43,123 nucleotides of DNA from Candidatus Zymogenus saltonus (lineage in GTDB: Bacteria; Desulfobacterota; Zymogenia; Zymogenales; Zymogenaceae). Of this stretch, positions 36,232 through 43,123 are shown piece after piece. The notes beneath the pieces were generated by a model that saw only the letters and a list, made by a program, of their open reading frames with translations, was not told the origin of the DNA and searched no databases. The first letter of the stretch is position 1. Each line of letters begins with the position of its first letter. A program made the translations under genes and the position numbers. The stretch spans positions 1 to 43,123 of the forward strand of contig JAFGIX010000008.1 of NCBI GenBank assembly GCA_016929395.1, written 5' to 3'.

Positions 36232-36931
36232 CTTATTACTCCTTTAGGTCTTTTTGGGAGAACTCCACTTTTCTTAAAATAGTTATATGTTTCCCATTAC
36301 CTTCCTTCTATATATGTTATTCCCTGTACCTTTTATTCTGTCATTCCCAACATAACCTTGTCATTCCCAACTTGATTGGGAATCCAGAAAGATATTTTTT
36401 ACTGGATTCCCGCTTTCGCGGGAATGACAATTATTGCTAACCCTCTGGATTTGCGAACGCTCCACCCACAAACAGGAGCTTATCAGGACCACCCAACACA
36501 CAGACCAACCCTATCTTGAACTCAACCTCCAATCCAAAAGCAGGGTTTTGTCATGACCGCCCACAGTTTCCGCAGGAATGACAGATTGTGTCCATCCCTC
36601 TGGATTCCCGCTTTCGCGGGAATGACATGTTTTGCCTATCCCTCCGAATCCATCTTCTCAATTAAATGACATTCAATAGTCTTGCCGGATTCCTGAATGC
36701 CCCACTCACAATCAGAAACTTTTAGGTGACACGAAATACCCAGATACCCAGACACCCAACACACAGACCAACCCCATCTTAAACGTAATCTCCAGCCCAA
36801 AAGCAGGTATTTGTGGGGGCCACCTGCCGTTGCCACGCAATACCTACCCACTCCCCACTACCCAACCCCCCTAAATAACCGCCAACATCGATCAATGACA
36901 ACCACCAACCGCTTCGACATCCCCCGACCCC
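36232..36931. repeat. Repeat-filled intergenic region (left cluster)
   Basis: No gene. It contains element A (TCATTCCCAACTTGATTGGG core) at 36361-36387 and element B (GGATTCCCGCTTTCGCGGGA core) at 36402-36429 and 36600-36627. A and B together form an outer inverted repeat. Element C-like stretches (CCCAACACACAGACCAACCC) lie at 36461-36512 and 36701-36776. The same elements recur at 42411-42970. Confidence 0.75.
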
Positions 36932-38164
36932 CTAAAGCTCCTTTCTCCTGTAGGCCTGGGACGAAGGAACGATCATTATCCTGGCCACCGCCTGCATCAT
37001 CGGGTCGTCGCTCTTCTTGCACGACTCCTTGAGCATAAGGAGCATTTTACCCGCCTTCGTCTCCCCCCAGAACCAGTCTTCGAGGACCTTCCCCGAGGGC
37101 GACTCCTGCCCGGGCTGGGCGGTGATCGACTCGTAGTAGAACGCCTTGAGGTCGTCGGTCGCAAAGTTCAGGATAAGGGAGAGCGGCATATCGCCCCTCG
37201 GATTTTGGGGCGCCCCTCCGTCGAAGAATGCGCCTATAAAGTCGACGATCCTGTCGAGGTCGATCCCGCTTATCCCGACGGTCGTCCGCCCCCTTTTATC
37301 GAGGGCCATATCGTACCAGGGGCGCAGGGAATTCATCTCAGCTTTGACGGAATTGAGCATCTTCTCTGTATCGGTAAGCTCCCCCTCCTCTTTGGCGAAG
37401 TTCACCGGGCAGACGAGGTTCGTTATCGTCTCCTCCGACGTGGGATCCTCCTCGTCAAAGTCCACGAGGATCGGCCCCTCCTTCGCTTCGAGGAGCTTGA
37501 GGACCGAGGTTAAAACCTTCATCTGAAACTCCCTGTTGTTGGGGGCGCCGATGGGACGGCCCAGCTCGAACGGCACCCAGAGCGCCCGGGGCGGCTTCAT
37601 CTTCTCGGTGTGCTCCCTGACAAGACTTATCATGGTCGTGGGGATACCCTCCTCCTCGAAAAAGTGTGCAAGCCCGCCCACGGCGCGCGTGCAGAGCGGT
37701 CAGACCGGAAGCAGGAATATCGCATCAACGTTATCCTTTTTTAAAACCGCCGCGAGCTCCCTTGCGGAAGGCTCCATCTGGGACGGGTCCATCGCCCCCA
37801 TGAACGAGTAGTGGTAATCGGCGACGGAGCCTATCCGCCCCTCGGCCGCCAGCTCCTTGAGCCGCTCTATGGGAAACATGACGTTTACGTCCTGTTGAAA
37901 ACCCGAGTGGTCGAAGTTGGTGGAGGCGTGGGTCGTGACGAGGTCTCTCGCCTCGACATCGCCGGGGATTATCCTGTAGATGTCCCCCGGATCGAAGGTG
38001 AAGGGGCGGTCGTCCCTCTTGTGAATGCCCCCGGTGGTGATTATCGCCACGCGCCTCTCCGAGAGGGGCGGCCCCTCTACCCAAGGATTTGTGTCGTAGG
38101 TCGGGCACGGGACGCTCAACATATACTCCCGCTCCTTTTCGTTCATCCTGTCCAGCCTCGCCAT
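36932..38164 (-). CDS. GrdB-family selenoprotein B-like protein with in-frame UGA selenocysteine
   Basis: Two frames that a standard code would separate are in the same phase, with only UGA (37700-37702) and six codons between them. Read through, they give 410 residues with Sec at 155 in LLPV-U-PLCTRAVGGLAHFF, a UxxC redox motif. The upstream part (TTGGIHKRDDRPF, IPGDVEARDL, NFDHSGFQQDVNVMFPIERL, SVADYHYSFMG) and the downstream part (KPPRALWVPFELGRP, GRTTVGISG, WFWGETKAGKML) both match the glycine/sarcosine/betaine reductase selenoprotein B family; relatives as I recall them often carry CPxC here. AAGGAG lies six bases before ATG 38164. No grdA, grdC, prd or sel gene is nearby, so the substrate is unknown. 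Confidence 0.85.
37667..37693 (-). promoter_or_regulatory. SECIS-like hairpin directly after the selenocysteine UGA
   Basis: Starting six bases after the UGA, UGCACGCGCGCC can pair with GGCGGGCUUGCA (10 of 12 positions) around a GUG loop. Position, stem length and a loop beginning with G-U agree with bacterial SECIS elements, which lie just inside the coding region and bind SelB. Confidence 0.65.
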
Positions 38165-38374
38165 TTTTTTCTCCTTGAACCTACCCGAAAAATGTCAGAT
38201 TTTTTATTTTCAATGTCACACAATAACGCAACTTGGCCAATAATTCAAGAAATAATGCAAATCATAAATATTTTGTAAAAAGTATTGATTAATAATTCGA
38301 TATGTATGAGAATGGTCGACAAAAATAGTTGACAAAAAAGGGGCAAGAACCGAAACAGAAAGGGAGGTATTGCG

Positions 38375-39199
38375 ATGAAAGACTTTAACGGCAAAACCGC
38401 CTACGTGGTCGGCGGCTCGAGCGGGATCGGGCTCTCCACGGCGAAGCTTCTGGCAAGCCTGGGGGCGCATGTAATCATCTTCGCAAGGGGAAAGAAGAGG
38501 CTGGACGACGCCGTGGCGGAGATCAAGGGAAGCACGCTTTCCAAAACGCAAAAGGTCGCCTCCTTCTCCATGGACGTCTCCGACAACAAGGCGGTCAACA
38601 CCATCATGAACGGGTGCGTTGAGGAGTTCGGTCCCCCCGACCTTTTAATCAACTCCGCCGGCCGGGCGCGTCCCCACTACTTCGGCGATATCACCTTTGA
38701 TATGTTCGACGAGACGATGAAGATGAACGCCTACGGCGTCTGGAACACAATATCGGCCCTCGTCCCCCACATGAAGGTGAGGGGGGGCGGATACATCGCC
38801 AACGTCTCATCGATGGCGGGCTTTCTGGGCGTCTTCGGCTACACCGACTACGCGGCGTCCAAGTTCGCGGTTACCGGGCTTTCCGAGGCGCTGAGGAGCG
38901 AGATGAAGCCCTTCGGCATAACCGTGTCGATCCTCTGCCCGCCGGACACCCAGACACCCGGGTTCAACGTGGAAAACCTCACCAAGCCTGTGGAGACAAA
39001 GGTCCTCTCCGAAAACGCCAAGGTGATGACGTCGGACGCCGTTGCTAAGGGATTCATCAAGGGGATCAGAAAGGGAAGGTTCATGATAATCCCCGGATTC
39101 GACGGCAACCTCACCTACCTGGCAAAGCGGCTCGTCCCGGGGGTCGTGGAGATGGTCATGAATTCCACCATTAAGAAGGTGCAGAAGAGGATGAAATGA
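38375..39199 (+). CDS. Short-chain dehydrogenase resembling 3-ketosphinganine reductase
   Basis: This classical SDR of 274 residues has the cofactor loop GGSSGIG at 13-19, NSAG near 93, catalytic Ser 145/146, Tyr159 and Lys163 (YAASK). The stretch CPPDTQTPGFNVENLTKPVE is very close to the signature of eukaryotic-type 3-ketodihydrosphingosine reductase (KDSR), which reduces the keto group after serine palmitoyltransferase. The C-terminus is basic and amphipathic. GGGAGG precedes the ATG. It is divergent from the selenoprotein gene and overlaps the next gene by four bases. No palmitoyltransferase gene is here, so another ketone substrate is possible. Confidence 0.85.
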   Translation: MKDFNGKTAYVVGGSSGIGLSTAKLLASLGAHVIIFARGKKRLDDAVAEIKGSTLSKTQKVASFSMDVSDNKAVNTIMNGCVEEFGPPDLLINSAGRARPHYFGDITFDMFDETMKMNAYGVWNTISALVPHMKVRGGGYIANVSSMAGFLGVFGYTDYAASKFAVTGLSEALRSEMKPFGITVSILCPPDTQTPGFNVENLTKPVETKVLSENAKVMTSDAVAKGFIKGIRKGRFMIIPGFDGNLTYLAKRLVPGVVEMVMNSTIKKVQKRMK

Positions 39200-42290: not shown

Positions 42291-43123
42291 TTTCCCTCCA
42301 ATCAATTCTAAAAGTCTTACAGTATCAGTATTATAAACCAGTTTGCAGGCTGTTGAAATATAAAACGGGATATTTTGAAAGTTTATGCCTTAAAGAGGTC
42401 ATATTCACGTCCCACCCACAAGCGGGGGCTTGTCAGTGGAACCCGGCACACAGACCACCCCTCTGGATTCCCGCTTTCGCGGGAATGACATTTATTATTC
42501 TGTCATTCCCAGCTTGATTGGGAATCCAGAAAAATATCAATACGGATTCCCGCTTCCGTGGGAATAACATATACTTTTTTTAAGAAATGGGCGGCAGGAG
42601 GAAATTGCGGGAATAGTGCAATCACTCATCCATAAGCGGAAACTTATCAGCGAAGCCCGGCACACAGACCACCCCTCTAGATTCCCGCTTTCGCGGGAAT
42701 GACATTTACTATTCTGTCATTCCCAGCCCATGGTGTTCCCCTAACATCAAGGATAATTGAATCTCCCACTGACAAGCCGGAGCTTGTCAGTGCCACCCAA
42801 CGCACAGAGCACTCCCACTCCACCACCACGTCATTCACGACACCATAAAAAATCCATATTCTGTCATTCCCAACTTGATTGGGAATCCAGATTGATATTG
42901 GGTAACGAAACGATCGCGTGTTTCCTGCATTGACACGATTGCTTCGTCGCTTAAGTCCCTCGCAATGACGGTATTAATAGAACAATAACTATTGACACAC
43001 AATTTCTATTTCCGTAAAATGTTTTCAATATGATTAAAGTGAAAAAGTTACGATCTTACCTTACAGTTTAGTCGTTTAAAGAGAAGATATTTTATCATAG
43101 AAGAGCCATCCCCGAACTTTAAT
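42291..43123. repeat. Repeat-filled intergenic region (right cluster)
   Basis: No gene. Element C copies lie at 42411-42461, 42623-42676 and 42764-42815. Element B copies are at 42463-42490 and 42677-42704, with a weaker one at 42542-42569. Element A copies are at 42503-42529 and 42864-42890, with a truncated one at 42717-42740. A fourth motif (ATTGCTTCGTCGCTT...CTCGCAATGACG) lies at 42937-42970. Order C-B-A is repeated twice almost intact. The last 150 bases are AT-rich with nothing recognised. Confidence 0.75.

What the first reader, a model, noticed from the sequence alone, without database searches (positions are those of the whole stretch)
36932..38164. Selenoprotein: GrdB-family protein with UxxC motif and a SECIS-like hairpin
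Two adjacent frames are in phase across a single UGA. Residues on both sides match one family, and the UGA falls on the redox position of a UxxC motif where I recall relatives carrying Cys. A 27-base hairpin with a GUG loop begins six bases after the UGA. Automatic callers would report two truncated proteins. The protein is not beside any glycine, betaine or proline reductase gene, so it may be an uncharacterised selenoenzyme of this family, divergent from a ketone-reducing SDR.
Basis: partly seen in the sequence, partly recalled or inferred. Interest (0 to 1): 0.85.

Follow-up and report, generated by a model that had tools for sequence, protein, structure and literature searches.

The report
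Selenoprotein related to proline reductase
A gene that ordinary software would report as two broken halves is one gene for a selenium-containing enzyme, in which the "stop" signal UGA is read as selenocysteine; it belongs to a longer, undescribed branch of a known family (proline/glycine reductases), and what it acts on is not known.

Summary
On the minus strand (38164..36932) a 410-codon frame is interrupted only by UGA at codon 155, in LLPV-U-PLC-TRAVGG, followed by a 27-nt GUG-loop hairpin. The genome has tRNA-Sec(UCA), selA, selB and a Sec-containing selD. Full-length relatives at 33-78% identity, in Desulfobacterota and Pseudomonadota, keep the UGA (17 of 17 aligned). Over 69 distinct UGA-containing relatives the hairpin covaries strongly (91% of pairs formed; 94 double-change cells against a shuffle maximum of 38), including synonymous third bases that track their partner. 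Cys-containing relatives lose the hairpin core. So UGA is very probably decoded as selenocysteine. The first 230 residues match PrdB/GrdB (PF07355; TIGR04483), but PrdB's cut-off is not met. Residues 262-410 form an all-helical domain with no match in Pfam, NCBIfam, PDB or the viral fold library. The long proteins form one clade (100/99), separate from true PrdB. The genome lacks PF09338, the pyruvoyl-subunit family that PrdB/GrdB work with (positive controls rang), and no operon partner is conserved. Best reading: a stand-alone Sec-x-x-Cys reductase or reductive lyase, substrate unknown. It is a new long variant of a selenoprotein family known since 1995-2005, not a new kind.

The parts
36932..38164 (-). 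Selenoprotein gene, 410 codons plus TAA, read through one UGA
   Evidence: one frame apart from UGA155; 33-78% identical homologues over the full length
37699..37701 (-). In-frame UGA, codon 155, read as selenocysteine (UxxC, redox partner Cys158)
   Evidence: UGA at the same codon in all full-length relatives
37666..37692 (-). SECIS hairpin, 27 nt, apical loop GUG; the loop starts 18 nt after the UGA
   Evidence: -15.9 kcal/mol; covariation over 69 distinct sequences; lost in Cys relatives
37475..38134 (-). PrdB/GrdB-like domain (residues 11-230)
   Evidence: TIGR04483 33-226, E = 4.5e-36; PF07355 11-151, E = 2e-10; alpha/beta fold in the AlphaFold model
36935..37381 (-). C-terminal all-helical domain (about residues 262-410), no known family
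   Evidence: Model pLDDT mostly 84-94; no Pfam/NCBIfam/PDB/BFVD match; conserved DLKA(F/Y)YxEA and WFWxET motifs
38165..38178 (-). Ribosome-binding site AAGGAG before the ATG
   Evidence...GGTTCAAGGAGAAAAAAATGGCG
38375..39199 (+). Divergent short-chain dehydrogenase gene (neighbour; also beside the gene in the sister genome L020)
   Evidence: PF00106 E = 1.2e-48; L020 3-281 minus strand

Best explanation
The gene encodes a 410-residue selenoprotein. SelB with Sec-tRNA(UCA) reads UGA155 as selenocysteine because of the hairpin just downstream; this is shown by comparative evidence, not by experiment. The product is a PrdB/GrdB-like alpha/beta domain carrying a Sec155-x-x-Cys158 pair, joined to a C-terminal helical domain peculiar to this clade (shown by sequence and model). 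Most likely it acts without the pyruvoyl subunit that PrdB and GrdB need: the selenolate attacks a carbon or heteroatom bearing a leaving group in a small substrate, Cys158 resolves the Se adduct as a selenenylsulfide, and a cellular thiol system or ferredoxin re-reduces it. The helical domain would act as lid or substrate-binding part in place of the partner subunit. This catalytic part is inferred, and I give it about 0.4. The confidence below is for the Sec-decoded, long PrdB/GrdB-type enzyme.
For: tRNA-Sec with UCA anticodon, selA, selB and selD all above cut-off in the same assembly (99.6% complete), and selD itself has UGA in the right place. UGA at the same codon in every full-length relative, across Desulfobacterota and Pseudomonadota. 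Hairpin in fixed register with compensatory changes: 91.3% of cells paired against 72% (maximum 76%) in column shuffles and 23-44% when slid; 94 double-change cells against a shuffle maximum of 38; Asn codon third base C faces G in 11 of 11 and T faces A in 22 of 22. The published bacterial SECIS rules (G in the loop's first two positions, 16-37 nt spacing, MFE at most -7.5; PMC13188914) are all met. Cys homologues keep only 2-4 of 6 core pairs, while 57 of 69 Sec forms keep 6 of 6. PF09338 absent from the genome with positive controls ringing. Long clade support 100/99.
Against: No expression, selenium-labelling or activity data. The catalytic proposal rests on analogy with PrdB/GrdB and with FarB. 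No conserved neighbour hints at a substrate. A partner subunit of another family, encoded elsewhere, is not excluded. The hairpin's energy by itself is not significant.
Confidence: 0.9

Rival explanations
1. A true D-proline reductase PrdB subunit or glycine/betaine reductase GrdB subunit that works with a pyruvoyl partner (PrdA/GrdE) encoded elsewhere in the genome.
For: Best family match is PrdB (TIGR04483, 124 bits) and the UxxC position is the same.
Against: Score far below the PrdB cut-off (124.5 against 300) and GrdB cut-offs; PF09338 (GrdE and PrdA precursors) absent from the 99.6% complete assembly while it rings in three PrdB-bearing records; PF04723 (GrdA) not found (no positive control); tree separates the long clade from PrdB, each 100%; extra C-terminal domain.
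Confidence: 0.05
2. Nonsense mutation, assembly error or pseudogene: UGA is an ordinary stop, giving a dead 154-residue fragment.
For: Mechanical callers give two ORFs. Decayed orthologues exist in a few genomes (L027 with an extra TAA, L040/L075 frameshifted).
Against: UGA at the same codon in all intact full-length relatives from many independent genomes; strong purifying selection on both sides; covarying hairpin; full Sec machinery.
Confidence: 0.01
3. UGA is a programmed stop or regulatory switch: the 154-residue product is functional and read-through is a minor, selenium-dependent event.
For: In-frame UGA with SECIS always gives some termination (established knowledge).
Against: UGA falls on the catalytic position of UxxC; residues 156-230 of the same domain, Cys158 included, are among the most conserved; Cys relatives need no stop.
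Confidence: 0.03

Closest known systems
PrdB, D-proline reductase selenoprotein subunit (TIGR04483), e.g. L126, L127 in prd operons and L125
   Same: Same domain over about 195-230 residues at about 31-37% identity; Sec (or Cys) in UxxC at the same place; conserved H79 and D85 region and MFP-D/E-RL-EL segment
   Different: PrdB is 238-242 aa without the C-terminal domain; in L126 and L127 it sits beside PrdA, while no PF09338 protein exists here; separate 100% clade; score below the PrdB cut-off
GrdB/GrdF/GrdH, selenoprotein B of glycine, sarcosine and betaine reductase (PF07355, TIGR01917/01918)
   Same: Same superfamily and UxxC motif
   Different: Domain order differs: GrdB has about 196 residues before the shared domain and little after, here the shared domain comes first with about 180 residues after; only profile positions 197-422 of 431 match
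PrdB selenoproteins of marine metagenomes and Deltaproteobacteria (PMC1088965, PMC2398784, PMC1794560) and the short UGA relatives found here (about 260-330 aa)
   Same: Sec in UxxC, PF07355, covarying SECIS hairpin in the same register
   Different: No C-terminal helical domain; outside the long clade; motif mostly PG/PA-U-xxC-N/H instead of PV-U-PxC-TRAVG
FarB, GrdB-like protein proposed for fluoroacetate C-F cleavage (PMC10838667)
   Same: Works-like precedent: selenolate of a GrdB-type protein attacking a carbon with a leaving group, partner without pyruvoyl group
   Different: Has a FarE partner and an operon; no such partner here

Membership tests
Bacterial selenoproteins | In-frame UGA conserved across homologues and aligned with Cys/Sec | tested here: met
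   UGA in all full-length relatives; distant short relatives have Cys
Bacterial selenoproteins | SECIS hairpin just downstream: G in loop positions 1-2, spacing 16-37 nt, MFE at most -7.5 | tested here: met
   Loop GUG, spacing 18 nt, -15.9 kcal/mol, covariation (rules from PMC13188914)
Bacterial selenoproteins | selA, selB, selC, selD in the genome | tested here: met
   selD itself with UGA
Bacterial selenoproteins | Selenium in the purified protein | not testable with these tools
   Needs 75Se labelling or mass spectrometry
GRDB superfamily PF07355 | Score above Pfam gathering cut-off | tested here: met
   40.8 bits against 22; all 17 members of A2 match at E up to 0.1
PrdB equivalog TIGR04483 | Score above curated cut-off of 300 bits | tested here: not met
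   124.5 bits
PrdB equivalog TIGR04483 | PrdA pyruvoyl partner in the genome | tested here: not met
   PF09338: none in G000; rings in W01, W02, W03
GrdB TIGR01917 / GrdF / GrdH | Score above curated cut-off | tested here: not met
   44.7, 49.8 and 62.1 bits against 602, 800 and 775
GrdB TIGR01917 / GrdF / GrdH | GrdA (PF04723) in the genome | tested here: inconclusive
   Not found, but no positive control rang

The most novel reading that the evidence does not exclude
A stand-alone class of selenoenzymes in which a PrdB-type Sec domain is fused to an undescribed helical domain that replaces the pyruvoyl subunit, catalysing a reductive cleavage not yet known for this superfamily, and spread by transfer among Desulfobacterota and Pseudomonadota.
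Probability: 0.35. Interest if true: 0.6.

Novelty: new variant of a known kind. Interest (0 to 1): 0.42.

Why it matters
Gene callers split this protein in two, so an intact selenoenzyme clade in several lineages is easily missed. It lacks the pyruvoyl partner on which PrdB and GrdB chemistry depends, so it tests whether the Sec-x-x-Cys fold can work alone. The full-length proteins aligned here all use selenocysteine, none cysteine, which suggests a reaction that needs the selenolate.

Tried and rejected
C-terminal domain: Pfam, NCBIfam, PDB sequence search, Foldseek against PDB and BFVD all gave nothing significant (best PDB E for the domain alone 2.2). Conserved operon: all-against-all comparison of 17 neighbourhoods gave no shared partner (CLC channel twice, MEDS regulator twice, disulphide reductase-like proteins in 4 at varying distance, SDR and metallo-beta-lactamase in 3, not adjacent). 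Single-sequence folding as evidence for SECIS: rejected, z = -0.61. Rfam on the gene: one match, a chance microRNA far below its gathering score. Literature: no paper in the held library on a long GrdB/PrdB protein; the 2026 inventory's GrdB and PrdB passages and the part of Table 1 that I read list only GrdB and PrdB.

Full report
Observation. The gene lies on the minus strand, 38164 to 36932. Table 11 gives two in-phase ORFs (154 aa ATG; 249 aa GTG); with UGA read through there is one 410-codon frame ending in TAA, with UGA at codon 155 in DAIFLLPV-U-PLC-TRAVGGLAHFFE. A good ribosome-binding site, AAGGAG, precedes the ATG.

Homology on both sides. P0001 matches PF07355 (2.2e-10, residues 11-151) and TIGR04483 PrdB (4.5e-36, residues 33-226), but not at the PrdB, GrdB, GrdF or GrdH cut-offs. 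Related genomes encode full-length versions at 78% (another Candidatus Zymogenus genome, L020), about 50% (Pseudomonadota MAGs L021, L022) and 33-62%. In all of them the codon is UGA. A profile search of 395 genomes of the phylum found relatives in 100; nearly all short relatives (about 260-330 aa) also have UGA in UxxC, one has GGA (L047), and several from Pseudomonadota have TGC/TGT. Between the two Zymogenus genomes dN is about 0.15 and dS is saturated on both sides of the UGA.

Sec machinery. tRNA-Sec with anticodon UCA, selB, selA and selD are present; selD carries its own UGA in KAAG-U-AAKTAP.

SECIS. The hairpin is 27 nt and starts six bases after the UGA with loop GUG. It meets the published bacterial SECIS constraints. 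Folding energy alone is not unusual against shuffles, so I tested it comparatively. With 69 distinct UGA relatives placed in the codon frame without gaps, the eight pairs 14-32 to 21-25 (T of UGA = 1) are formed in 91.3% of cells against 72% (maximum 76%) in 1000 column shuffles and 23-44% when slid by 1-3 bases; cells with both sides changed number 94 against a shuffle maximum of 38. Pair 18-28 is formed in 72 of 72 unfiltered rows with five pair types, 19-27 in 72 of 72 with five types. Synonymous third bases follow their partners: the Asn codon ends in C facing G (11 of 11) or T facing A (22 of 22). These counts are of sequences, not independent events. Negative control: 12 Cys relatives outside the prd operon keep 2-4 of 6 core pairs; 57 of 69 Sec forms keep all six.

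Architecture. AlphaFold gives a confident model (pLDDT 87, pTM 0.88): an alpha/beta domain with U155 at the start of a helix after a strand, and an all-helical domain from about residue 262. The helical domain modelled alone is similar and has no significant match in PDB or BFVD and no Pfam or NCBIfam family. PrdB lacks it, and GrdB has its extra residues on the other side of the shared domain (profile positions 197-422 of 431). A maximum-likelihood tree on the shared columns puts the long proteins in one clade (100/99), which also holds two partial orthologues, and the three PrdBs in another (100/100); the four Cys forms in the tree are one clade too.

Context. In the genus the gene is flanked by a divergent SDR and, on the other side, an ABM-domain protein and a TPP enzyme. 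Elsewhere the neighbours change; no partner is conserved. The genome has a single member of this family and no PF09338 protein, while the same search rings in three records with PrdB. GrdA was not found either, but without a positive control. Hence it is unlikely to be a subunit of classical proline or glycine reductase.

Mechanism. By analogy with PrdB/GrdB (review PMC13188914) and FarB (PMC10838667), the selenolate at 155 is the nucleophile or reductant and Cys158 the resolving thiol. That it acts without a pyruvoyl partner is inferred from the absence of PF09338; that the helical domain takes the partner's place is a guess consistent with its restriction to the long clade. Substrate: unknown.

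Known or new. PrdB/GrdB selenoproteins are long known, including in Deltaproteobacteria and marine metagenomes. The 2026 inventory names only GrdB and PrdB for this superfamily in the passages read. I found no description of the long form in the held library; unheld literature may have one. I therefore file it as a new variant of a known kind.

Noticed in passing
L017 (own genome C1:10871-11806): SelD of this genome is itself a selenoprotein: UGA in KAAG-U-AAKTAP.
   Followed up: partly
L047 (G358:C12): A short relative has GGA in place of UGA but keeps all eight SECIS pairs: recent loss of Sec or a base-call error.
   Followed up: partly
L027 (G028:C120) and L040/L075 (G330:C1): Long orthologues that look decayed: an extra in-frame TAA before the UGA in one, frameshifts in the other.
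   Followed up: no
window 36359-36429, 36600-36628, 42463-42899; L020 1840-1878 and 3510-3553: A dispersed palindromic repeat of about 40 bases (ctggattcccgctttcgcgggaatgaca), shared with the sister genome.
   Followed up: no
L020 2308-3444: A 4Fe-4S double-cluster plus HEAT-repeat protein sits between the ABM gene and the TPP enzyme in the sister genome; it is missing at the same place in the window.
   Followed up: no
L076 8001-8771; L080, L082, L084, L137-L145: Pseudomonadota short relatives with Cys share the motif VPN-C-P-x-C; in Roseomonas the gene is next to selO.
   Followed up: partly
L125 6010-6723 and record W01 258999-260039: A PrdB of Peptoclostridium acidaminophilum appears alone in the PLSDB gene table, but the PF09338 search finds an unlisted PrdA-like frame (594 aa) just upstream.
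   Followed up: no
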